Positions 38,037 through 59,730 of a DNA stretch of 64,000 nucleotides are shown piece by piece. The position numbers and the translations under genes were made by a program. Below the pieces are notes generated by a model. It saw only the letters and a list, made by a program, of their open reading frames with translations. It was not told the DNA's origin and made no database searches. The stretch is from Gloeomargarita lithophora Alchichica-D10 (GTDB lineage: Bacteria; Cyanobacteriota; Cyanobacteriia; Gloeomargaritales; Gloeomargaritaceae): positions 2,367,958 to 2,431,957 of the forward strand of contig NZ_CP017675.1 of the NCBI RefSeq assembly GCF_001870225.1. The letters are read 5' to 3'. How positions within the stretch are numbered: the stretch's first letter is position 1; each line of letters starts with the position of its first letter.

Positions 38037-38234
38037 TGTACATACCTCCAGAGGGCATAGGTTAGGTGAGATTGCGATTACAATTAGCCTACAAGCTTGC
38101 CCTTAAGTTTAGGGTCAAGTTCTGTGCTAACATTTTTAACATTTATTTACAAAAAAACCGGTGTGTGGGGGCGATGGGGGGATGGGGTTACAATGGTAGC
38201 CGGGCTTTAGGTGTTTATAATTTACGGACAAAAA

Positions 38235-39218
38235 ATGCGGCAAGTTTCCGTGGTGGTGCCGATTTACAACGAGGTGGAGAATATCCCCCATCTCCTGCCA
38301 GCGGTGGCGGGGGTGCTGGCCGAGGCGGGTTTAGACTATGAATTAATTTGCGTGGATGACGGCTCCCAGGATGGTTCTACGGAACGATTGCGGCATTTAG
38401 CCCAGGAACGCTACGACCTGAAGGTGGTGGTTTTGCGGCGCAATTATGGCCAGACGGCGGCGATGGCGGCGGGGTTTGACCAGGCGGCGGGGCGGGTGGT
38501 GGTCACCTTGGACGGGGATTTACAAAACGACCCCCAGGATATTCCCCGCTTGCTGGCAAAATTGGACGAGGGCTATGACCTGGTAAGTGGTTGGCGGCAG
38601 GCACGGCAGGATCATGGGGTGACCCGGTTGCTTCCATCCCGGGTGGCAAATTGGCTGATTGGCCGGGTAACGGGAGTACAACTGCATGACTATGGCTGTA
38701 CCCTCAAGGCGTACCGGCGGGAATTGCTCCAGGATATGAATCTATATGGGGAACTGCATCGCTTTTTACCCGCCTTGGCCTACATCGAGGGGGCACGGAT
38801 TGCAGAATTGCCAGTGCGTCACCATCCCCGCCGGTTTGGACAAAGTAAGTACGGTTTGGGGCGCACCTTCCGGGTAATGATGGATTTGCTCACCATTGCC
38901 TTTATGAAAACCTTTCTCACCCGCCCGATGCACGTCTTTGGCCTGCTGGGTTTGGGGTTTCTGGGGCTGGGGCTGGGGTTGGGAATCTACCTGCTGGTGC
39001 TGAAAGTAGGGCTAAGCCAAAGCATTGGTCAACGTCCCCTATTATTTTTGGCGGGGTTAGCGGTGATTTCGGGACTGCAACTGTTTTGCTTTGGTTTGCT
39101 GGCCGAATTGCTAATGCGTACCTACCACGAATCCCAGGGGCGACCCATTTACCGGGTGCGGGAGGTGGTGGGTGGGGAACCGCCCGTGTTAGTCAATGGA
39201 AATCCGCTGCGGCCTTGA
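38235..39218 (+). CDS. GT2 glycosyltransferase with membrane anchor
   Basis: 327 residues. Family 2 catalytic features are QVSVVVPIYNEVENIPHLLP, LICVDDGSQDGSTERL and VVTLDGDLQNDPQDIPRLL; then HHPRRFGQSKYGLGRTFRVM precedes two transmembrane helices. This layout fits polyprenyl-phosphate sugar transferases (DPM1/GtrB-like) and the processive-related group. The ATG at 38235 begins MRQVSVV; a GTG at 38211 is less likely. It is a second copy of the type seen at 12226. Confidence 0.88.
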   Translation: MRQVSVVVPIYNEVENIPHLLPAVAGVLAEAGLDYELICVDDGSQDGSTERLRHLAQERYDLKVVVLRRNYGQTAAMAAGFDQAAGRVVVTLDGDLQNDPQDIPRLLAKLDEGYDLVSGWRQARQDHGVTRLLPSRVANWLIGRVTGVQLHDYGCTLKAYRRELLQDMNLYGELHRFLPALAYIEGARIAELPVRHHPRRFGQSKYGLGRTFRVMMDLLTIAFMKTFLTRPMHVFGLLGLGFLGLGLGLGIYLLVLKVGLSQSIGQRPLLFLAGLAVISGLQLFCFGLLAELLMRTYHESQGRPIYRVREVVGGEPPVLVNGNPLRP

Positions 39219-39389
39219 GGCGGGGGGCATGGGGGTTGGCGGGGCGGCGGGGGTTTGGCGTTCCAACCAGGATTTTAAGGGGTCTTCCTGCAAATCCAAA
39301 CCCAACAACCCGGAGACAAACCCGCCCAGAAATGCGGTCGGTTGCTGGAGCAGTTCTTGCATCAGGGGACTTAGTTCGTTGAACAACAT
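39189..39389 (-). CDS. Small conserved cyanobacterial protein
   Basis: 66 residues, beginning MLFNELSPLMQELLQQPTAF and LGGFVSGLLGLDLQEDPLKS, then WLERQ and a Pro-rich tail. Similar short proteins with the QQPxAFLGGFVSGLL core occur in other cyanobacteria, with no known function. It may associate weakly with membranes through the hydrophobic core. The end overlaps the convergent glycosyltransferase gene by 30 bases. Confidence 0.62.
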   Translation of the reverse strand: MLFNELSPLMQELLQQPTAFLGGFVSGLLGLDLQEDPLKSWLERQTPAAPPTPMPPASRPQRISID

Positions 39390-39483
39390 CGGTTTAATTG
39401 GGGTCACTGTTACTTACACAAGGCCATTTTAACTTAGCACAAAGTTTCCTTGGACACCCGAAAAAAGCTATGATAAAAAATGA

Positions 39484-39580
39484 CCTGGAACCATGCGGTT
39501 TCAACGCCTGAACCGTGTCAGAACCGGAAGGAAGCAGCACTAAAGGATGCTTGCGACAGGCGTGGCCTCCGGGTCTTCCC
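39484..39580 (+). ncRNA. ffs: Signal recognition particle RNA (small bacterial type)
   Basis: The conserved SRP core is present: CAGAACCGGAAGGAAGCAGC at about 39519-39538 with the Ffh-binding asymmetric loop, and the closing strand GCGACAGGCG pairs with CGCCTG upstream. The outer strands GGAACC and GGTCTTCC also pair. About 97 nt long. Exact ends are estimated. It guides Ffh to signal sequences. The pyrR frame starts about 36 bases after it. Confidence 0.88.
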
Positions 39581-39615
39581 AAGTTTATCTCAATGGGATT
39601 GCATCCGGGTACGCT

Positions 39616-40149
39616 GTGGAAATCGAACTATTTTCGGCGGAAGAACTGCGGCGTACCCTGAATCGGCTGACTTCCCAAGTGGTGGAAGCTACGCCCCATT
39701 TGGCGGATTTATGTTTGTTGGGCATCCACACCCGCGGGGTACCCCTGGCGCAACGGTTGGCGCACAATATCCACCAGTGGGAGACGGTGCAGGTGCCGGT
39801 GGGGGCGTTGGATATTACCTTTTACCGGGATGATTTGGATCGCATTGGTGCCCGTACTCCGGCTCCGACCCAGGTGCCGTTTGACATTACCGGGCGGGTG
39901 GTGGTGCTGGTGGATGATGTGATTTATAGTGGCCGGACGGTGCGGGCGGCTTTGGAGGCGATCAAAGACCACGGTCGCCCCCAGGTGGTGCGCTTGGCGG
40001 TGTTGATAGACCGGGGGCATCGGGAATTGCCCATTCACCCGGATTTTACGGGCAAAGTGGTGCCCACATCGCGAGAAGAGGCGGTGCGGGTGTGTTTGGC
40101 GGAAACTGACCACCGGGATCGGATTATTCTGGCAAAGAAAACGGGATAA
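39616..40149 (+). CDS. pyrR: PyrR-like bifunctional regulator / uracil phosphoribosyltransferase
   Basis: About 177 residues from GTG at 39616, chosen because the frame upstream runs into the SRP RNA. Matches are [36 protein letters not shown] and the PRPP site [20 protein letters not shown]. In Bacillus PyrR attenuates pyr mRNA; in cyanobacteria the UPRT role or regulation is not settled. No pyr gene is next to it. Confidence 0.88.
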
Positions 40150-40178
40150 TTTTATGATTTCTAGGGGTATAGGGTAAT

Positions 40179-40286
40179 GACACCTCTAAAAATAGGTCGT
40201 AGGGGCGTACCCACCGTTCCTGGTTCTGTGGAATTTCAGTATGCCTAAGGCACACAGGCTAACGCAAATCGTGTCATATTGCTATA
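40179..40286. mobile_element. Hybrid-ended element before the Eco47II-type pair
   Basis: The left end is GACACCTCTAAAAATAGG and the right end is CGTGTCATATTGCTATA, so the two termini come from different end types. The interior has GGTCGTAGGGGCG, CTGGTTCTGTGGAATTTC and a GTATGCCTAAGGCACAC palindrome. No target duplication is evident. It marks the left edge of the AT-rich island, 25 bases before the endonuclease start. Confidence 0.75.
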
Positions 40287-40310
40287 CTCAGGTAAATTTA
40301 AAAAAAGCGT

Positions 40311-41054
40311 ATGAGAGATTATAATCTTGGCTTTATAAGTAATGAAAATATTTATAGTCACGTCAAAGAGACTGTAAAGAAATACAGATTTAGCGTTGAC
40401 TTGGCTGAATTCAACAGAAATTTAGTTGATCCAATCAAATTGACATTTGATACAAGAGTTTATCGTAAAGACATTGAATTTGTAATCGAAAGTGAGGTAT
40501 TAAGACAAATAGATAAATCCAATACAAATCATATTGGATATTTTCATCAAAACATATTTCAATACTTAGGTCACGGATGGGAAGTACCAGCCCAAGGATA
40601 CGACATTATTAATACTGAACTCAAGTATTTTATCGAAATAAAAAATAAGCATAATACCATGAATTCTTCATCTGCTCAGAAGACTTATATGAGAATGCAA
40701 AATACTTTACTATCTAGTCCAGAGGCAATATGTCTGCTAGTAGAAGTGATTGCACGAAAAAGTCAAAATGTTACATGGAGAGTGAGTTTAGATGGTCAAA
40801 CTGTCTCCAACGAAAGAATACGTCGTGTTTCCATTGATAAATTTTATGAGCTTGTGACTGGTAACAGAGTTGCATTTAGGGAATTGTGTGAGAAGCTTCC
40901 TTTAATAATCCAAGACGTAGTCGAGGATAACAATTTTGAGGCCGAATCTAACTCTGTATTCAAAGAGTTAAGGACTATTGATCCGAATTTATTGAAAAGT
41001 ATTTATCTGCTTTCTTTTAGGGAATATGAAGGATTTAATGATTTCAATGTTTGA
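40311..41054 (+). CDS. Eco47II-family type II restriction endonuclease
   Basis: 247 residues. The run from HIGYFHQNIFQYLGHGWEVP through AQGYDIINTELKYFIEIKNK and MNSSSAQKTYMRM matches the Eco47II family, with the acidic D-x(n)-ExK nuclease residues in YDIIN and IEIKNK. Characterised members cut GGNCC. The gene is AT-rich compared with its neighbours and is coupled by an 8-base overlap to the methyltransferase gene. An element copy lies immediately upstream. Confidence 0.85.
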   Translation: MRDYNLGFISNENIYSHVKETVKKYRFSVDLAEFNRNLVDPIKLTFDTRVYRKDIEFVIESEVLRQIDKSNTNHIGYFHQNIFQYLGHGWEVPAQGYDIINTELKYFIEIKNKHNTMNSSSAQKTYMRMQNTLLSSPEAICLLVEVIARKSQNVTWRVSLDGQTVSNERIRRVSIDKFYELVTGNRVAFRELCEKLPLIIQDVVEDNNFEAESNSVFKELRTIDPNLLKSIYLLSFREYEGFNDFNV

Positions 41055-42354
41055 TTCAGACGTGGTTTCAGCAGAATTGCTGGCAGATATAGTTTCTGTA
41101 TCAAAAGCTACGCTATTAAAGTGGGAAAAAAGTGGGAGACTGATTCCTTCTCAAAATTCTATTACGCACAGAAAAGAATATAAAGTTTCTCAACTAATTC
41201 AGTTTGAAGAAGTGAGAAATATGATAAACAGTAATTGGGATCAGGAATTGAATGTTAAGCCTGCAAAAGACTTTTCATCGGTTGAACTTTTTGCGGGTGC
41301 GGGCGGACTAGCTCTAGGACTGGAAAAAGCCGGATTTAATGCAGTCGCTCTCAATGAACTCGATGAAGATGCTTGCAAAACTCTCCAAGGGAATCATTCT
41401 CAATGGAATGTCATTCAAGGCGATGTAAAGAATGTAGATTTTGCTAAATTTATTGATGTTGATCTTGTGTCTGGCGGATTTCCGTGTCAAGCATTTTCCT
41501 ATGCGGGCGAAAAATTAGGTTTTGAGGATACCAGAGGCACACTATTTTTTGAATTTTCCCGAGCAGTAAAAGAAATAAGACCGAAGGTTTTTCTAGGTGA
41601 AAATGTGCGTGGTTTGTTAAATCATGACAATGGGAAAACGTTGTCTGTTATAAAATCGATTATCTCAGATTTAGGGTATACGCTGATTGAACCAAAAGTT
41701 TTGAAGGCACTGTTCTATCGCGTCCCTCAAAAGAGAGAGCGTTTATTTTTTGTTGGGATCAGAAACGACTTAGTTAAGTTTGCAAAATTTCAATGGCCAT
41801 CACCGTATTACAGAATATTGGTTTTGAAAGATGCTTTGAAAGCAGGCGAATTATATGCTACTGATGTTCCAAAATCAGAAGGTCAATCTTATCCCAACAG
41901 AAAAAGGGAAATACTATCCTATATTCCTCAAGGTGGTTACTGGAGAGATTTGCCGGATGATCTCCAAAGAGAATATATGCAAGGTAGTTATTTCTTAAGT
42001 GGTGGTAAAACTGGTATGGCACGGCGGCTTTCATGGGATGAGCCGAGTTTAACGCTCACCTGTTCTCCGGCTCAAAAACAAACCGAGAGATGTCATCCAG
42101 AGGAGACAAGACCCTTAACCATTAGAGAGTATGCCAGGATACAAACATTCCCAGATGAATGGCATTTTTCAGGTTCCGTGAGTAGTCAATATAAACAAAT
42201 TGGTAATGCGGTGCCTGTGAATTTGGCTTACGCAGTCGGTCGTAGTATTATTGCTCTATTAAATAGTATTGACGCAGAGGTTGATCTAGGAAGTGATTCT
42301 TTAGCATTTAATGGGTCATTTCACTCCAGACAATTAACTTTGCTAAACACCTAA
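41047..42354 (+). CDS. DNA cytosine-5 methyltransferase with N-terminal HTH
   Basis: About 435 residues. The N-terminal 70 hold a MerR-like helix-turn-helix (LADIVSVSKATLLKWEKSGR). The methylase motifs follow: VELFAGAGGLALGLEKAGF (I), SGGFPCQAFSYAGEKLGF (IV, catalytic Cys near 147), GENVRGLLNHD (VI), PQKRERLFFVGIRND (VIII), and YKQIGNAVPVNLAYAVG (X). It should protect the site cut by the upstream enzyme and, through the HTH, may repress its own operon. An ATG at 41026 would add seven residues. Confidence 0.9.
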   Translation: MFDSDVVSAELLADIVSVSKATLLKWEKSGRLIPSQNSITHRKEYKVSQLIQFEEVRNMINSNWDQELNVKPAKDFSSVELFAGAGGLALGLEKAGFNAVALNELDEDACKTLQGNHSQWNVIQGDVKNVDFAKFIDVDLVSGGFPCQAFSYAGEKLGFEDTRGTLFFEFSRAVKEIRPKVFLGENVRGLLNHDNGKTLSVIKSIISDLGYTLIEPKVLKALFYRVPQKRERLFFVGIRNDLVKFAKFQWPSPYYRILVLKDALKAGELYATDVPKSEGQSYPNRKREILSYIPQGGYWRDLPDDLQREYMQGSYFLSGGKTGMARRLSWDEPSLTLTCSPAQKQTERCHPEETRPLTIREYARIQTFPDEWHFSGSVSSQYKQIGNAVPVNLAYAVGRSIIALLNSIDAEVDLGSDSLAFNGSFHSRQLTLLNT

Positions 42355-42573
42355 CCACTCAAATGCTGACGATCGTATAGATTGCTGGTTCCCCGGTGCC
42401 GTCTAGGGAACAAAGCACTGCAACCGACGATGTAGTAATATCTTATTTATCATCCGAAGTCAGTGGCGGGGGGTGAGTTTAGTCGCTATATCGCTTGAGT
42501 TAGCGGTAGGGTCAGCAACCAAAAGATCATCGGTCAAGTTAAAATGTTCAGTGTTGAAATCTATACAATGGTT
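42355..42573. other. Gap between methyltransferase and hicB
   Basis: 219 bases with no gene. It contains the attC-like sequence at 42405-42489 and AT-rich leader sequence before hicB. Confidence 0.5.
42405..42489 (+). repeat. attC-like sequence 1
   Basis: It starts GGGAACAAAGCACTGCAACC and GACG and ends GGGGTGAGTTTAGTCGCTATA, with a variable centre. The arms can partly pair (CACTGCAACC against GGTGAG). The arrangement matches attC recombination sites of integron cassettes, though the outer boxes are degenerate. It follows the end of the methyltransferase gene. Confidence 0.45.
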
Positions 42574-42801
42574 ATGAAACAAAAACGGCAGTTCACGGCA
42601 ATCATCGAACGTGAGGGCAATGGATATATTTCTTTATGCCCAGAATTAGATATTGCAAGTCAAGGAGAGACCATTGAGGAATCTCGTAATAATCTAATTG
42701 AGGCATTAGAGCTATTTTTTGAAACTGCTGATCTTTCAGAGATTGAGAGTCGCTTGCACGGAGAGATATTTGTGACCAGTTTGGAGGTAATAGTTGGGTA
42801 G
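42574..42801 (+). CDS. hicB: HicB-type antitoxin
   Basis: 75 residues in the partial RNase-H fold of HicB: FTAIIEREGNGYISLCPELD, IASQGETIEESRNNLIEALE and LFFET. It lacks a C-terminal DNA-binding domain, as in the short HicB form. It should inhibit HicA encoded next, with an 8-base overlap. The start is uncertain: ATG at 42574, 42568 or 42544; the 42574 start matches family N-termini best. Confidence 0.85.
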   Translation: MKQKRQFTAIIEREGNGYISLCPELDIASQGETIEESRNNLIEALELFFETADLSEIESRLHGEIFVTSLEVIVG

Positions 42802-43021
42802 GCTACGAGTTCTATCCGCTCGTGAAGTCTGTCAAATTCTTGAAGGACAGGGATTTACGAAGATACGGCAACGAGGTAGCCACATTATCATGCAAAAGCA
42901 AACAGAAGATTCAACAATTACCGTTCCTATTCCTAATTGCTCAGAGATACGGATTGGTACTTTGCAGTCAATCATTCGTCAGTCAGGGTTACCTCGGTCA
43001 TTGTTTGAAGTCTCTCGGTAG
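42794..43021 (+). CDS. hicA: HicA-type mRNA interferase toxin
   Basis: 75 residues, a dsRNA-binding-like fold: LSAREVCQILEGQGFTKIRQ, then RGSHIIMQK with the catalytic His, and TVPIPNCSEIRIGTLQSIIR with QSGLPRSLF. It starts with TTG at 42794 inside the end of hicB. HicA cleaves mRNA and is blocked by HicB. The order hicB before hicA is the reverse of the Escherichia coli operon but common. Confidence 0.88.
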   Translation: MGRLRVLSAREVCQILEGQGFTKIRQRGSHIIMQKQTEDSTITVPIPNCSEIRIGTLQSIIRQSGLPRSLFEVSR

Positions 43022-43039
43022 GGAAGATAATGATCAACC

Positions 43040-43127
43040 ACATAACAAGCCCTTGCAACGGAACGTATTAGCTTAGTCAGTTGAGTTACAAAGGTGATCT
43101 GCGTCTGGTGAGCGGGAACGGTAGCTT
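43040..43127 (+). repeat. attC-like sequence 2
   Basis: It begins ACATAACAAGCCCTTGCAAC and GGAACG and ends CTGGTGAGCGGGAACGGTAGCT. The left box ACATAAC matches RYYYAAC at six of seven places; the right box is degenerate. It follows hicA directly, so hicBA lies between two attC-like sequences as a cassette would. Confidence 0.45.
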
Positions 43128-43167
43128 GCGTGTATCCTAAAAGTTAGGGGCATGGGAGGTTTTGGTA

Positions 43168-43689
43168 ATGATGAAAGGATGGTTAATGGTTGTAACACTG
43201 GCTTTGACGGCACTGCCCGCATTGGCGCAACCGGAGGCGGTACAACGGCTCAAAAACACCCGTGAGTGCGTGAACTGTAATCTCAGCGGGGCGGACTTGC
43301 GGGGCATTAATCTCATTGGGGCAAACCTGAGCGGGGCAAATTTGAGTGGGGCGAGGCTGGGGGCTGGGGATATGGATTTGAATCGCACCGCCCTCAGTCG
43401 GGCCAATTTGAGTGGGGCAAATTTGAGTGGGGCGGATTTAAGCAATGCCAGTCTGTACGGCACGAATTTGACGGGTGCCAATCTCACGGGTGCCAATTTA
43501 ACCGGGGTGAGCCTAGTGGGAGCCAATTTAACCGGTGCCAATGGGCAGGGGGTAAATTTAACGGGAGCCGTGTTGGTAAACACAAATTTGACCAATACCA
43601 ACCTGAGTGGAGCCATTTTGAATCAAGCCTTTATCGCCGAAGTAATCTACAAAAGCACCCGTTTACCCGATGGCTCAGTCCGCAATTGA
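43168..43689 (+). CDS. Exported pentapeptide repeat protein
   Basis: 173 residues. A signal peptide (MMKGWLMVVTLALTALPALA) precedes RLKNTRECVNCNLSGADLRG, the common opening of secreted cyanobacterial pentapeptide proteins with two Cys, and then tandem ANLSGANLSG and ANLTGANLTG units. It ends TRLPDGSVRN. The GGGAGGT site at 43154-43160 supports the ATG at 43168. Function is unknown; a periplasmic or lumenal site is likely. Confidence 0.87.
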   Translation: MMKGWLMVVTLALTALPALAQPEAVQRLKNTRECVNCNLSGADLRGINLIGANLSGANLSGARLGAGDMDLNRTALSRANLSGANLSGADLSNASLYGTNLTGANLTGANLTGVSLVGANLTGANGQGVNLTGAVLVNTNLTNTNLSGAILNQAFIAEVIYKSTRLPDGSVRN

Positions 43690-43761
43690 ACCCAGAATGC
43701 CCCCGGTGGGTCATGGGGATCAAGTAAACTGAGGGTGAATTTTGATTGGGAGGGTTTGGGG

Positions 43762-44661
43762 GTGAAAATAGGACTATCACTGGCATACATTGTAGGTTTC
43801 ACGGCGGGGCAGGTGTTCTTTATGCCCACGGCAACGACTGCCCAAACCGCTCGCACCATTACCTGTGAGTCGGTGAATGGCCGTTACGTTACCTGCATGA
43901 CGGATACCAGCGGCGGGGTGACCTTGCAACGGCAATTGAGTGGCACCGGTTGTGTGGAAAATCGCACCTGGGGCGTGAACAACCAGGGTATTTGGGTGGA
44001 TAAAGGCTGTCGGGGGGTGTTTAGTGTCGCCGCCGGGCCGACCACCCTCACCTGTCGGTCGGTGAATTTCAAGTATCAGTTTTGTCAAATTGACACCCGG
44101 GGTGGGGTGCGCTTAGCCCGCCAGTTGAGTGATACCCGTTGCACCTTGAATAGTAGCTGGGGTTATGACAACCGGGGCATCTGGGTGGACAAAGGCTGTG
44201 GGGCGGAGTTTTTGGTGGGGGCGGCCAATCCCATTACTCCTACGCCGCCGGTGAACTCTGGGCAGGTGATTCGCTGTGAGTCGGCAAATAACCGCCGGGT
44301 TGACTGTCCAGTGAATACCCGCCAAGCGACCGTGACCCTGCGGCGGCAATTGAGTGGTGCGGCCTGTGTGCCAAACCGCACCTGGGGTTATGACAACCGG
44401 GGCATCTGGGTCACCAGCGGCTGTCGGGGGGAATTTTTGGTGGCGGCGGGGAACGCCAACGTCCCGCCCAAGGATCAACTGGTGGTGTGCCGCTCCCGCA
44501 ATGGCACCTATATCCGTTGTGCCGCCAATACCCGCCGGGGGGTGCTTCTGCAACGGCAGTTGACCAACCGTCCTTGCCGCCAAAATCAAACCTGGGGTTT
44601 TGACAATCAGGGCATCTGGGTCACCCAGGGCTGTGAAGCGGAGTTTCTCGTGCGGAGATGA
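43762..44661 (+). CDS. Secreted protein with four DUF3011 repeats
   Basis: 299 residues. GTG at 43762 follows GGGAGG and starts a signal peptide ending near TATTAQTA. The mature part has four Cys-rich DUF3011 repeats of 60-70 residues, each with C(R/E)S, RQLS, a Cys, then TWGxxNxGIWV and GCxxxF (for example NRTWGVNNQGIWVDKGCRG). Each repeat has four Cys, probably disulfide-bonded. Function is unknown; the fold may be lectin-like. The stop overlaps queE by four bases. Confidence 0.85.
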   Translation: MKIGLSLAYIVGFTAGQVFFMPTATTAQTARTITCESVNGRYVTCMTDTSGGVTLQRQLSGTGCVENRTWGVNNQGIWVDKGCRGVFSVAAGPTTLTCRSVNFKYQFCQIDTRGGVRLARQLSDTRCTLNSSWGYDNRGIWVDKGCGAEFLVGAANPITPTPPVNSGQVIRCESANNRRVDCPVNTRQATVTLRRQLSGAACVPNRTWGYDNRGIWVTSGCRGEFLVAAGNANVPPKDQLVVCRSRNGTYIRCAANTRRGVLLQRQLTNRPCRQNQTWGFDNQGIWVTQGCEAEFLVRR

Positions 44662-45413
44662 ACCAAAAGGCTAACCTGGTGGAAATTTTCGCCGCCATCC
44701 AGGGGGAAGGTAGCTACCTGGGGGAACGGCAAATTTTTCTGCGGTTGGGGGGCTGTGACCTGCGCTGTCGGTTTTGTGACAGTCCCCATACCTGGCAGAC
44801 CAAGCCCCACGCTCGGGTGGAAGTTACTGCTGGGGAGCGGGATTTCCAACCGGTAACCAATCCCGTTACCAGGGCGCAGATTTTGGCCTGGTTACACCGG
44901 CAAGCCCAGGGAGGGCGGCATCAAGCCATTAGCATCACCGGCGGCGAACCCCTGTTGCAGGCGAATTTTTTGGCCGCATTGTTACCCGAATTAACCGCTC
45001 AGATTCCCCTCCCCATTTACTTGGAAACCGGCGGTCATCGCCCCCAGGAATTAGCCCAGGTGTTGCCTTGGGTGAGTATTATCGCTATGGATTACAAGCT
45101 ACCCAGCGTCAGTGGCGAATCCCAGCATCGGGCGCACCAGGAATTTCTCACCCAGGCGATCGGCACCGGGGTAGAACTTTTTGTGAAAATCATCCTGGAT
45201 CAGCACACCCAAACCTCAGAATTGGCGGCGGCTCTGGCGATGATCCAAGCCATTGCCCCGGAGATTTTGGTCATTTTGCAACCCGTTACCCCCCGCCCCA
45301 CCAGCCCCGCTCCCACCCCGGCGCAGGTATTGGGCTGGCAAAAACTCGCCCAGGATTATATGCAAAAGGTGCGGGTGATTCCCCAAACCCATCCCTTCTT
45401 GGGGCAATTGTAA
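44658..45413 (+). CDS. queE: 7-carboxy-7-deazaguanine synthase
   Basis: 251 residues. The radical-SAM cluster ligands are in LGGCDLRCRFCDSPHTW (C-x3-C-x2-C), with IFAAIQGEGSYLGERQIFLR before it and ISITGGEPLLQANF after. QueE makes the deazapurine core of queuosine. It is coupled to the DUF3011 gene by a four-base overlap, which may be chance packing since the functions differ. Confidence 0.93.
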   Translation: MNQKANLVEIFAAIQGEGSYLGERQIFLRLGGCDLRCRFCDSPHTWQTKPHARVEVTAGERDFQPVTNPVTRAQILAWLHRQAQGGRHQAISITGGEPLLQANFLAALLPELTAQIPLPIYLETGGHRPQELAQVLPWVSIIAMDYKLPSVSGESQHRAHQEFLTQAIGTGVELFVKIILDQHTQTSELAAALAMIQAIAPEILVILQPVTPRPTSPAPTPAQVLGWQKLAQDYMQKVRVIPQTHPFLGQL

Positions 45414-55796: not shown

Positions 55797-55901
55797 GTTG
55801 ATATAATATGTACACAACAAATACATTTTTCCTGAACCTTGCGTTTTTCAAGAATTTGGTATTTTCTATGGAAAAGTTTTTCAACAACCCAAAGTGAAAA
55901 T

Positions 55902-56876
55902 ATGACCATCTTTGAACGATTGACTAATTTTGTTCAGCGAGTATTCAAGACTAATTTGGAAATTTTTCTTGAAGCATTAAAGCACAGCCCTAATGCACAG
56001 GGGTATGTCAGTGGCTCAATCACGGAGTTATTGCTAAAAAAGAAACTTGAAGAAGAATATGGATTTGAAGTCAAACGAATTCGTGAAAAATGGGAAGGCA
56101 AAAAACATCCTAATCATCATGGAGATTTTTATTTCCGCAAACTAGAATCAAACATCTGGTATGTTATGGAATCTAAAGGCGTAAAATCGAATTCTGAAAA
56201 GTGGCATAAATTATACAACTTAGAGAAATTAAAAACTTTTCTCATCGCACATTCTGAAAAAATTCGTTGGATTAACCAGAATAACAATATTGAAGAACAA
56301 GTTATCAAATGGATATATCGAGAATTGCCAAAGTTTCAAGGTGAGTTTTCAACAACCATTTATGAATATGAAGAAATCCAAAACTACAACCCGCAACGGA
56401 AAACAGTAAAATCACGAGCAGTAGGGGCATTGAAACACCTTTCAAGAGAAGAAGTAAATGCTTTATTTGACAGTCGCCTCAATTATGTTATGTCAAAGAT
56501 TCGAGTTTTGGAAACTCACTTTGTTTCTGGTAAATCTGCTTCAAGTGACAGAACTCAAGCAACGCCCCGAAAAAATGAATTCAACGTTATTTCGATTGAC
56601 ATTTTTCTTCGGTATTCAGAACATAAATTTCTTTTTGCCAACCCTCAACACTTAGAATCATCTGGGGACGATGAAAATCACTTACAGCAAAATTACATCA
56701 TGGGATTTGTATTTACCGACGAATCTGGAAATGCAACATTAAGTATTACAGATGACTGGTACGAAAGCTTAAATGATGTTTACCAGACATTGAAGAAGGA
56801 AGATAGTATCAAAGAAGACGAAATGCAGGTTGATAATAGATATTTGATTGCAGAAGAAGCAAATGGAGAGTTGTAG
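55902..56876 (+). CDS. Probable PD-(D/E)XK restriction endonuclease
   Basis: 324 residues, AT-rich. The nuclease core is visible: an early helix with ITELLLKKKLEEEYGFEVKR, then HHGDFYFRKLE with Asp75 and WYVMESKGVKS with Glu90 and Lys92, giving D-x(n)-ExK. The rest is mixed alpha and beta (EEVNALFDSRLNYVMSKIRV, FNVISIDIFLRYSEH). No translocase helicase motifs occur, so it is not HsdR. It lies three bases before a methylase-specificity fusion, so it is inferred to be the cutting subunit. The ATG at 55902 follows an A-rich stretch. Confidence 0.65.
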   Translation: MTIFERLTNFVQRVFKTNLEIFLEALKHSPNAQGYVSGSITELLLKKKLEEEYGFEVKRIREKWEGKKHPNHHGDFYFRKLESNIWYVMESKGVKSNSEKWHKLYNLEKLKTFLIAHSEKIRWINQNNNIEEQVIKWIYRELPKFQGEFSTTIYEYEEIQNYNPQRKTVKSRAVGALKHLSREEVNALFDSRLNYVMSKIRVLETHFVSGKSASSDRTQATPRKNEFNVISIDIFLRYSEHKFLFANPQHLESSGDDENHLQQNYIMGFVFTDESGNATLSITDDWYESLNDVYQTLKKEDSIKEDEMQVDNRYLIAEEANGEL

Positions 56877-56879
56877 TAA

Positions 56880-58943
56880 ATGAAAAGGACACAGCAACAA
56901 ACTCGAAAAATGAAAGAGCAAGGATTGTTATTTTCCGAAGACAGTCTGTTACCTGAAAAACTCCCCCAAATTCAGGAATTACAACCTTCTAGCAATCTTT
57001 CAGCAGTTTTTGATGAGTGTCATAATTATATTTATGCCAATGAAGGAATGCTCAAAGACAAGATTTTTCATGAGATGGTTAAGTTGCTTATCATAAAACT
57101 TCATGACGAAAAATCTGCCAAGCAATTTGTAGATTTTGGCGTTACAACAAGTGAATATAAAGCCATTGTGGCAAATAAGCCCGATGAATTTATTTTGCGT
57201 CTCAGTAAATTATTTACTTCAATCAAGAATCACTATCGGGGATTTTTCACGGATGACGCATTAAAGTTAAAACCTTTGACTCTCGCTTATATTGTAGGAA
57301 AATTACAATATATTAGTTTAAGTAAAACATCTGGCGATATAAAAGGTGAAGCATTTCAAACTTTTGTAAATAGACATCAACGGGGAGACAGAGGAGAATT
57401 TTTTACACCCCACCCGATTGTTCGTCTTGCAGTTGAAATGATAGACCCCAAACTAAATGATAAAATTATAGACCCTGCTTGTGGAAGTGGGGGCTTCTTA
57501 ATTCAAGCAATAAATCATGCCCGACAAAATAATCCAAAATTAGACACGGCCAGTTTTGTGCAAAAAAGCATTACAGGCATTGAGTTTAATCCAGATGTAG
57601 CTCTTTCTGCAATGATACGTTTAGTTTTTGAAGGCGGCACAGGTTCAGAAATTATATGCACCAATGCGCTTATAGAAGATGAAAAATTAAATGATTCTTT
57701 TGATATTGTTTTAACAAATCCACCTTTTGGAAATAAAGGAAAGGTCGAAGACCAGAAGATTCTTGAGTCATACCTTCTTGCAAGAAAATGGAATAAATCA
57801 GCATCAAATGGAGGGGAAGTTTCCAGAACTGTTTTAGCCGGTCAATCACCTGATATTCTATTTATTGAGAAATCCATAAAATTATTGCGGGCAGGCGGAC
57901 GAATGGCAATCATCTTGCCAGATGGTCTATTACAAAATATCTCTAATCGGCATATTCGTTATTGGTTGCGTTCTCAGGCAAAAATATTAGGTGTTATTTC
58001 CATACCACAAGAAGCTTTTGTTCCGTACGGCACAGGAATTAAAACTTCACTTCTAGTAGTTCAAAAATTGCCCGCAAATAACGATTCCTGTTTTATGGCA
58101 CAAATCAAAAAGATGGGATATGATGTTAAAGGACAACCGATATATAAACGCAATGATTCTGGAATTATCGCCCGAACAAAATCAGGTCTTCCAATAGTTG
58201 ATGATGACATAGACGATATTTCTAAATCTTTTAGATTATTTGTCAATGGCGAATTTGAACAAAGTAATGATTGTGTTTATACAGTCAATAATGATTTGCT
58301 CAATTCAAGACTAGATGCTGAGCATTATTTGCCGAATGACCAAAAACTGTTGGCACATCTAAAATCTATTGGCGCAAGACCCTTAGGAGAAATTGCTGAT
58401 ATTTTGAGTGATTCAGATAATTTTCGTTTGGCAAGTGATAGTGAAATTAAATATATTGCTATTTCAGATGTTGATTATCGTACAATGCAAGTTGTTGCTC
58501 AACAAGTTATTAAAGCGCATGAGGCTCCATCACGCGCAACTTACAGAGTACACAGCGGCGATATTATTACAGCGGTTTCAGGAGCAAGCACAGGAAGCCC
58601 TCGGCAAGCAACTGCCCTTATTACAGAAGATGAAGACGGAGCGATTTGTTCAAATGGATTTTCAGTATTACGAAATATTCACGGAGTTGAGCCTTTATTT
58701 TTACTAGCGTATATGCGAACAGACCATTTCCTACGTCAGGTTAAAAGGTATATGACAGGTCATGCTATTCCTACTATTTCAGTGGATGATTTGTCACAAG
58801 TTTTAGTGCCTATTCCACCACAAACCGAACAGCAAAGAATAGCGCAAAACATTGCTGAAATTCAAGCAATGAGCAAAGTAGCGCTGAAAGCAGTCGAAAA
58901 AATTGTCAATGAGATGAGTCTTTTATTAGGCGAGGTTGCGTAG
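56880..58943 (+). CDS. HsdM-type N6-adenine methylase fused to a specificity domain
   Basis: 687 residues. The N-terminal helical domain leads to the SAM motif IDPACGSGGFLIQAINHA (198-215) and the catalytic VLTNPPFGNKGK (NPPF at 280-283), as in HsdM. From about 480 the chain changes to an HsdS-like target-recognition domain (ARPLGEIADILSDSD, ITAVSGASTGSPRQATALIT, GHAIPTISVDDLSQVLVPIP), ending in the helix EQQRIAQNIAEIQAMSKVAL. One half-S domain is present, so binding may be as a dimer. It is coupled to the nuclease gene. Confidence 0.87.
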   Translation: MKRTQQQTRKMKEQGLLFSEDSLLPEKLPQIQELQPSSNLSAVFDECHNYIYANEGMLKDKIFHEMVKLLIIKLHDEKSAKQFVDFGVTTSEYKAIVANKPDEFILRLSKLFTSIKNHYRGFFTDDALKLKPLTLAYIVGKLQYISLSKTSGDIKGEAFQTFVNRHQRGDRGEFFTPHPIVRLAVEMIDPKLNDKIIDPACGSGGFLIQAINHARQNNPKLDTASFVQKSITGIEFNPDVALSAMIRLVFEGGTGSEIICTNALIEDEKLNDSFDIVLTNPPFGNKGKVEDQKILESYLLARKWNKSASNGGEVSRTVLAGQSPDILFIEKSIKLLRAGGRMAIILPDGLLQNISNRHIRYWLRSQAKILGVISIPQEAFVPYGTGIKTSLLVVQKLPANNDSCFMAQIKKMGYDVKGQPIYKRNDSGIIARTKSGLPIVDDDIDDISKSFRLFVNGEFEQSNDCVYTVNNDLLNSRLDAEHYLPNDQKLLAHLKSIGARPLGEIADILSDSDNFRLASDSEIKYIAISDVDYRTMQVVAQQVIKAHEAPSRATYRVHSGDIITAVSGASTGSPRQATALITEDEDGAICSNGFSVLRNIHGVEPLFLLAYMRTDHFLRQVKRYMTGHAIPTISVDDLSQVLVPIPPQTEQQRIAQNIAEIQAMSKVALKAVEKIVNEMSLLLGEVA

Positions 58944-58954
58944 GGCAGAAAGCA

Positions 58955-59040
58955 ATCTAACAAATCACTGCACCCAACCGTATGCTAAACCATTCACATC
59001 ATCCAAATTCACTAACAACGGGTGAGTTCAACCGTTATAC
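58955..59040 (+). repeat. attC-like sequence 3
   Basis: The left box is ATCTAAC (matches RYYYAAC), followed by AAATCACTGCACCCAACCG. The right side is ACGGGTGAGTTCAACC and the box GTTATAC (six of seven to GTTRRRY). CACCC and GGGTG pair. The site follows the methylase-specificity gene. Part of it (58961-58988) is repeated at 59656-59683. Confidence 0.55.
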
Positions 59041-59091: not shown

Positions 59092-59476
59092 GTGGCAGAA
59101 ATTCCAAAAGGTACAATTTTAGAAATACTAGACCTGATGAGAAGATTAACAGAGCTTATCAACACTTCCGCCTACTTAGAGCTATCAGCATTTAATAAAT
59201 ATGGAGAAATTGGACAAATTGCCTATGTACTGGAGCAACTACAGAATGTTAAAGAAAAAGCTGTATCCACGTACACAAGGTTATCCACAGTTTTATTAAG
59301 AATTTCAGAAACTCAGCCCTCGCTAACTGCTACAATGTCAGATATAGCAATCTTATTTGAATTTAGAACAGCGGTCGCAGGGGGGTATCCCCCGCCCTTG
59401 GTTCTGCGGAATTTCCGTTCGTAACTCGTGTCATATTGCTATAGCATTGAAGAAGTAGTAAATGAATGGAGCCTAT
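59092..59476 (+). pseudogene. Small cassette-like gene split by an element
   Basis: The first part encodes MAEIPKGTILEILDLMRRLT, then ELINTSAYLELSAFNKYGEI and ETQPSLTATMSD, a helical protein of unknown family. The frame then enters an element (59345-59441). Removing the element and one TA restores TATMSDSIEEVVNEWSL and a stop at 59474, giving a product of about 94 residues. The start is GTG at 59092. The truncated form ends in element-derived residues and may still be stable. Confidence 0.75.
59345..59441. mobile_element. MITE-like element with TA target duplication
   Basis: 97 bp, ends TAGCAATCTTA and, inverted, TAGCAATATGA. TA lies at 59343-59344 and 59442-59443. The interior has TTAGAACAGCGGTCGCAGGG, the C run and CCCTTGGTTCTGCGGAATTTC. 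A TA target and short inverted ends are typical of elements mobilised by IS630/Tc1-like transposases. Confidence 0.82.
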
Positions 59477-59481
59477 AGGGT

Positions 59482-59655
59482 ATGAATACAGATGATCCTA
59501 AAAAAATTGAAGAAACCGTAGGAAAACTCAGAAAAGTTAGCCACCAATTTGATGCACTGAACTTTTCGCTTGATGTATTCTTATCGGAAATTGATGAAGA
59601 AATTCGGAAGAATTCAATTGTTGCGCTTCGTTTGCAAGCAAATCGGAGTGTATAG
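59482..59655 (+). CDS. Small 57-residue protein
   Basis: ATG at 59482 with AGGGT just before it. The product is MNTDDPKKIEETVGKLRKVS, HQFDALNFSLDVFLSEIDEE and ends ALRLQANRSV, a charged helical pattern. It starts five bases after the restored stop of the previous gene, so the two probably form a pair, perhaps a small toxin-antitoxin or an anti-restriction module. I do not recognise it. Confidence 0.55.
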   Translation: MNTDDPKKIEETVGKLRKVSHQFDALNFSLDVFLSEIDEEIRKNSIVALRLQANRSV

Positions 59656-59683
59656 CAAATCATTGCACCCAACCTCATGCTAA
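59656..59683 (+). repeat. Partial attC-like direct repeat
   Basis: CAAATCATTGCACCCAACCT and CATGCTAA repeat the sequence at 58961-58988 with three differences. It directly follows the stop of the small gene. The matching right arm is not clear. The two copies bracket the small-gene unit. Confidence 0.5.
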
Positions 59684-59730
59684 TGTGGTTATATTATCTA
59701 AAACTTTGACATCGGTTGCGTACAACGCAC

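What the first reader, a model, noticed from the sequence alone, without database searches (positions are those of the whole stretch)
42405..43127. hicBA lies between two attC-like sequences, as an integron cassette would
The two sequences at 42405-42489 and 43040-43127 share a layout: AAC near the left edge, then TGCAAC, and GGTGAG near the right edge. A third with better outer boxes is at 58955-59040. Integron cassettes carry one such attC site after the gene, and toxin-antitoxin pairs are frequent cassettes. No integrase gene lies in the window, so these may be a cassette cluster lacking an integrase, or solo insertions at secondary sites. The match is from memory of attC layouts, and the outer boxes of sites 1 and 2 are degenerate.
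Basis: partly seen in the sequence, partly recalled or inferred. Interest (0 to 1): 0.65.

Follow-up and report, generated by a model that had tools for sequence, protein, structure and literature searches.

The report
Stray integron cassettes in a cyanobacterial chromosome
A toxin-antitoxin gene pair and the restriction-enzyme genes beside it are worn-down integron cassettes (small gene units moved by a site-specific integrase) that were inserted into a cyanobacterial chromosome far from the cell's own integron, and the same genome carries about two dozen spots with such stray cassettes.

Summary
The three attC-like sequences are real. A covariance model built only from attC sites of other cyanobacteria has exactly these three places as its best hits in the window (34.1, 33.5, 19.3 bits), and each aligns to attC sites of integrase-bearing cyanobacteria far above every shuffle. 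A fourth, decayed site lies at 59651-59726.

hicBA and the upstream Eco47II-type restriction-modification pair form one inserted block (about 40143-43120). In three congeneric genomes the flanking genes are neighbours without it. The right junction falls inside the R' box of site 2, where IntI crossover would put it, which explains that degenerate box.

The genome is not integrase-free: partial intI copies and a 16-attC array lie about 1.5 Mb away. Another 35 attC sites are scattered over about 24 loci. Elsewhere in the genus, cassette junctions break exactly at G|TT.

The window's sites fold poorly, so they are probably fossils that no longer excise. The mechanism (off-target insertion; attG, CALIN) is known. 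Notable are the natural, base-level evidence and its extent in this genus.

The parts
40143..43120 (+). Inserted block: restriction-modification cassette plus hicBA cassette
   Evidence: Flanks 38217-40140 and 43196-45395 are contiguous (78 bp apart) in G085; flanks also neighbours in G389 and G390. Right edge precise to a base or two; left edge by comparison only.
40180..40290 (.). Copy of a dispersed intergenic repeat (about 40 other copies found in this genome), inside the block near its left edge
40311..41054 (+). Eco47II-family restriction endonuclease (cassette cargo)
   Evidence: PF09553 5.2e-89; PADLOC REase_II
41026..42354 (+). C5-cytosine DNA methyltransferase (cassette cargo)
   Evidence: PF00145 3.8e-87; TIGR00675
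42405..42491 (+). attC site 1, decayed (R'' AGGGAAC, R' GCTATAT); ends the restriction-modification cassette
   Evidence: R1 19.3 bits, E=0.027; alignment score 73 to the attC L044:1801-1887 of a Pseudanabaena integron, shuffle maximum 28
42544..42801 (+). HicB-like antitoxin
   Evidence: 48% identity over 48 aa to a HicB-like protein next to another HicA in this genome; weak PF12910 match below cut-off; weak PDB match 2yzt, E=0.0083
42794..43021 (+). HicA toxin
   Evidence: PF07927 1.4e-17
43040..43126 (+). attC site 2, decayed, ends the hicBA cassette; R' box 43120-43126 is a hybrid, its last six bases being host DNA; crossover between 43120 and 43121
   Evidence: R1 34.1 bits, E=6.5e-6; homology to empty site of G390 resumes at 43128
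55839..56876 (+). 345-aa protein without a family hit, in the second AT-rich island
   Evidence: no Pfam or PADLOC hit; only a sub-threshold NCBIfam hit; GC 0.35
56880..58943 (+). N6-adenine methyltransferase with a type I specificity-like C-terminal domain (cassette cargo before site 3)
   Evidence: PF02384 4.1e-36, PF01420 3.8e-7; below the cut-off of NF047738 MADS2
58955..59040 (+). attC site 3 (R'' ATCTAAC, R' GTTATAC; L arms intact, inner stem decayed)
   Evidence: R1 33.5 bits, E=8.9e-6; score 89 to L044:1801-1887, shuffle maximum 29; 80-87% identical to attC sites of G389, G085, G390
59651..59726 (+). Fourth attC-like site, strongly decayed
   Evidence: alignment score 52, shuffle maximum 31; not found by R1

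Best explanation
hicBA (42544-43021) with attC site 2, and the Eco47II-type restriction-modification pair with attC site 1, are two consecutive integron cassettes that an integron integrase placed at a secondary (attG-type) site at the 3' end of the gene 39547-40149, far from the genome's own integron. Inferred mechanism: IntI recombined the folded bottom strand of the attC of a circular cassette (or cassette pair) with ordinary double-stranded chromosomal DNA; the crossover lies after the first G of R', so the rest of the R' box of the last site is target sequence. The sites have since lost stem pairing and are probably no longer excisable. Toxin-antitoxin and restriction-modification cargo, which penalise loss, plausibly explain why the cassettes were kept. 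Shown: attC homology, block structure, empty site in relatives, junction position, many sister cassettes in the genome. Inferred: which integrase acted, whether one or two events occurred, why the block was retained. For site 3 and its methyltransferase cargo the claim rests on the attC and cargo layout alone, because no empty site was found there.
For: R1 hits and alignments to foreign attC sites. Empty site in G085, G389, G390 with homology resuming just behind site 2 and equal length after joining the flanks. Own-genome intI copies and array. 35 attC outside the array at about 24 loci; 14 of 34 dispersed attC keep an exact cassette left end upstream, 0 of 500 shuffles. Base-exact cassette ends at G|TT at 2174 kb against the empty site of G085, and one cassette at two different places in G389 and G085 with breaks exactly at the cassette ends. 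No attC hits and no intI in G386, G387, G388.
Against: The three window sites do not fold as attC and site 1 is weak in a whole-genome search (E=1.28). The left end of the block (G|ATAATT) is not a canonical TTRRRY end. The target reads G|GT instead of G|TT. Intactness of the genome's intI is unknown. No empty site for the site 3 island.
Confidence: 0.85

Rival explanations
1. The block is a piece of an integron array carried away by chromosomal rearrangement, or the remnant of a second integron that lost intI, rather than an off-target insertion.
For: Gene order in the genus is heavily rearranged, the second island sits at a rearrangement breakpoint, and both origins are proposed for CALINs (PMC8618304).
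Against: The flanks of the hicBA block are intact and adjacent in three relatives, and the right junction falls at the crossover inside R'. Single cassettes with exact ends occur elsewhere. No intI remnant near the block.
Confidence: 0.1
2. The attC copies are incidental: the island was brought in by homologous recombination or another mobile element that merely contained old cassettes.
For: The left end is not a clean cassette end, and a dispersed repeat lies close to it.
Against: Annotated ORFs in the block are only the cassette cargo, and the right end coincides with the attC crossover. The dispersed repeat has some 40 copies elsewhere in this genome and lies inside the block, not at the right end.
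Confidence: 0.05
3. The sequences are ordinary gene leaders or a repeat family without relation to attC.
For: They are intergenic and do not fold stably.
Against: Model and alignment evidence from attC sites beside intI in other species; three congeners give no hits at all; copies sit in the genome's own integron array.
Confidence: 0.01

Closest known systems
attG-type off-target insertion of integron cassettes into chromosomes (Loot et al. 2024, Nat Microbiol; primary paper not held, read only as cited in PMC12901181 and PMC11023631)
   Same: Cassettes ending in attC sit in ordinary chromosomal DNA far from intI; crossover after the G of R'; empty site in relatives.
   Different: Natural fixed insertions seen across species of one cyanobacterial genus; the window's copies are decayed; the target of the hicBA block reads G|GT today.
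CALIN (cluster of attC sites lacking an integrase; described in PMC8618304)
   Same: Two attC sites 0.6 kb apart with cassette genes and no intI nearby.
   Different: The genome has partial intI copies and an array elsewhere, and most stray attC sites of this genome are single or in groups of two to four.
Sedentary chromosomal integrons, as in Vibrio (from general knowledge and PMC8618304)
   Same: A subfamily of near-identical attC sites (AAATCACTGCACCC...) recurs within the genome, and toxin-antitoxin pairs are common cargo.
   Different: About two thirds of the detected attC sites (35 of 51) lie outside the array.

Membership tests
integron gene cassette (hicBA unit) | attC site directly 3' of the cargo, same orientation | tested here: met
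   site 2 starts 18 bp after the hicA stop; R1 34.1 bits on the + strand
integron gene cassette (hicBA unit) | R'' (RYYYAAC) and R' (GTTRRRY) outer boxes | tested here: inconclusive
   R'' ACATAAC fits; R' GGTAGCT does not, as expected if its last six bases are host DNA; site 1 has both boxes decayed
integron gene cassette (hicBA unit) | bottom strand folds into the attC hairpin with extrahelical bases | tested here: not met
   attC-form energies -1.3, -0.7 and -3.0 kcal/mol, probabilities 0.003, 0.001, 0.20; most sister sites reach -8 to -19. Hence descent from a cassette is claimed, not present activity
integron gene cassette (hicBA unit) | cassette 5' end (G|TTRRRY) complementary to its own R'' | tested here: inconclusive
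   hicBA left end GCTATAT matches GTTATGT at 5 of 7; exact at 14 of 34 dispersed sites of the genome
integron gene cassette (hicBA unit) | excision or integration by IntI | not testable with these tools
   needs a recombination assay
off-target (attG-type) insertion | empty target site in relatives and junction at the crossover point in R' | tested here: met
   G085, G389, G390 lack the block; right junction 43120/43121
off-target (attG-type) insertion | an integron integrase in the genome or lineage | tested here: met
   TIGR02249 partial hits 2.3e-45 and 2.6e-31, fragments in G085 and G389; intactness not judged, part withheld
CALIN | two or more attC sites close together without intI | tested here: met
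   42405-42491 and 43040-43126; no intI in window
HicAB toxin-antitoxin | HicA toxin domain with adjacent HicB antitoxin | tested here: met
   PF07927 1.4e-17; the HicB assignment is weaker

The most novel reading that the evidence does not exclude
In this cyanobacterial genus the usual fate of an integron cassette is not the array but the open chromosome: cassettes rich in toxin-antitoxin and restriction-modification cargo are inserted one by one just behind the stop codons of host genes, some target sites are reused across species, and the integron acts as a genome-wide gene disperser.
Probability: 0.4. Interest if true: 0.7.

Novelty: new member of a known kind. Interest (0 to 1): 0.5.

Why it matters
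Off-target cassette insertion was proposed as one of three origins of integrase-free attC clusters (PMC8618304) and is now described as attG insertion. This genus gives natural examples resolved to the base: empty sites, hybrid R' boxes, exact cassette ends, and one chromosomal site behind a TAG stop codon that holds different cassettes in three species. It makes directly testable how often cassettes settle outside arrays, which targets they use, and whether addictive cargo is what fixes them.

Tried and rejected
Rfam gathering scan: only the SRP RNA. A hand-made R/L-box scanner gave too many false hits at low scores and served only to collect attC seeds beside intI genes. Free single-strand folding of the window sites gave no support; reported as evidence of decay. 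No empty site was found for the 55.8-59.7 kb island: its flanks lie at unrelated places in the relatives. Empty sites for the stray cassettes at 1396, 2524 and 1253 kb were not resolved because flanks are rearranged. The dispersed repeat at 40180-40290 was considered as the cause of the block and rejected, having some 40 copies elsewhere. The genome may be Gloeomargarita: a guess from size and setting, not verified; the paper library holds no paper with both 'Gloeomargarita' and 'integron'.

Full report
Observation. The three sequences are present as described, except that site 3 reads TGCACC. To test them without circularity I collected attC sites only from other species. The genome has hits to the integron-integrase family TIGR02249 at 839.6 kb and 835.3 kb. 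A search with the first 141 residues brought 80 contigs encoding relatives, and attC sites on those contigs were found with a box scanner. Twenty cyanobacterial sites of 85-88 bases were aligned. Their structure (R''/R' and L''/L' arms with an extrahelical G) shows 94.7% pairing and strong covariation, which 0 of 500 shuffles reach. Local alignment to foreign attC sites exceeds all shuffles, and shows a fourth, decayed site at 59651-59726.

Anatomy. Site 1 follows an Eco47II-type endonuclease and a C5 methyltransferase. Site 2 follows a HicB-like antitoxin and a HicA toxin. Site 3 follows an N6-methyltransferase fused to a specificity-like domain. All cargo has the orientation expected of a cassette with its attC at the 3' end. 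GC content drops from 0.47-0.59 in the neighbouring DNA to 0.35-0.43 in both islands.

Empty site. Window 38217-40140 and 43196-45395 lie 78 bp apart in the congener G085; the same left flank and the gene at 43162-43689 are neighbours in G389 and G390. Homology to G390 resumes at 43128, just behind site 2. G390 reads GAAACCCGGCGGTTGAGCGTGTATCC; joining the window's left flank (GAAAACGGG) to its right flank (GTAGCTTGCGTGTATCC) gives the same length, 26 bases. The right junction thus lies after the first G of the R' box of site 2 (43120/43121), the crossover point of IntI, and the remaining six bases of that box are host sequence. The left end (G|ATAATT) is less canonical, so the left boundary rests on the comparison alone. 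The hicBA cassette's own left end, GCTATAT in site 1, matches the reverse complement of its R'' (GTTATGT) at 5 of 7 positions.

Genome context. The own genome holds 50 R1 hits at E <= 0.05, plus site 1 at 19.3 bits. Sixteen lie in an array at 837.8-869.7 kb beside the intI copies; 35 are spread over about 24 loci. Congeners G389, G085 and G390 have 28, 13 and 4 hits; G386, G387 and G388 have none and no intI. Partial intI genes are in G085 and G389. Of 34 dispersed attC sites, 14 have an exact copy of the reverse complement of their own R'' upstream, mostly 470-870 bp away, the size of a one-gene cassette; shuffled assignment gives 5.9 +/- 1.8 and never 14 in 500 trials.

Two cases fix the mechanism. 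At 2,174 kb the sequence is GGATTGAATG|TTAGCCC ... GGCG|TTATCCGGCC, while G085 has an uninterrupted junction of equal length; the cassette's left end GTTAGCC is the exact complement of its R'' GGCTAAC, and its R' (GTTATCC) ends in host sequence. At the locus of 2,124 kb, the three species have different DNA inserted behind the same stop codon (ACAGTAG|TTAT...), each with attC hits. In G389 one inserted unit is 94% identical to a cassette on contig 2 of G085, with homology breaking exactly at G|TT on the left and after CAACCG on the right. Discrete cassette units therefore do reach chromosomal sites in this genus.

Cargo. Many dispersed attC sites follow toxin-antitoxin genes: two further HicA/HicB-like pairs (356 kb, 2,017 kb), ParE-like toxins, YoeB, a PIN-domain toxin and a PemK/MazF-like toxin. 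hicBA plus attC is thus a recurrent arrangement in this genome. Enrichment was not formally tested.

Present state. With DNA energy parameters the window's sites have attC-form energies of -1.3, -0.7 and -3.0 kcal/mol and probabilities of 0.003, 0.001 and 0.20, among the poorest of the 51 sites; most others reach -8 to -19 kcal/mol. The window's cassettes are probably fossils.

Breadth. 83 of 386 sampled cyanobacterial genomes have R1 hits at E <= 1e-5, whereas 41 have an intI-like hit at E <= 1e-30 and 22 pass the family cut-off. Cassettes without a recognisable intI are therefore common in the phylum. The attC search was run with stricter filters and few candidates scored per genome, so its counts are lower bounds.

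Known or new. Integrase-free attC clusters, with off-target insertion as one proposed origin, are described in PMC8618304. attG insertion is cited in PMC12901181 and PMC11023631; the primary paper was not held. The element is a new member of a known kind. The natural, base-level evidence and the extent of scatter are what a specialist would notice.

Noticed in passing
L006:1-5042 (G000:C1:835001-840042): Two partial intI copies about 4.3 kb apart with cassettes between them; the left copy is truncated at its N-terminal end by an attC-like end. The C-terminal part of both is withheld, so it is open whether an intact integrase exists.
   Followed up: partly
G000:C1:2124179 (L224), G389:C1:654560 (L237), G085:C1:1179308-1179606 (L244): A chromosomal site directly behind a TAG stop codon that holds different cassette DNA in three species: an insertion hot spot for cassettes.
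   Followed up: partly
window 40180-40290 and 59378-59445: A roughly 110-bp intergenic repeat with some 40 copies in this genome and related copies in congeners; resembles a MITE or REP-type repeat.
   Followed up: no
G000:C1:356.3 kb and 2016.9 kb (L210, L223): Two further HicA/HicB-like pairs, unrelated in position to the window's, each ending 5-9 bp before an attC.
   Followed up: partly
L006:771-2772: An ATPase-like protein followed by an HNH-like protein as cargo just before the attC at L006:2819, resembling a two-gene defence system by eye; no family search was run.
   Followed up: no
cyanobacterial genomes, for example G278 and G284: Genomes with strong attC hits at widely separated places but no intI hit: stray cassettes seem common in cyanobacteria.
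   Followed up: no
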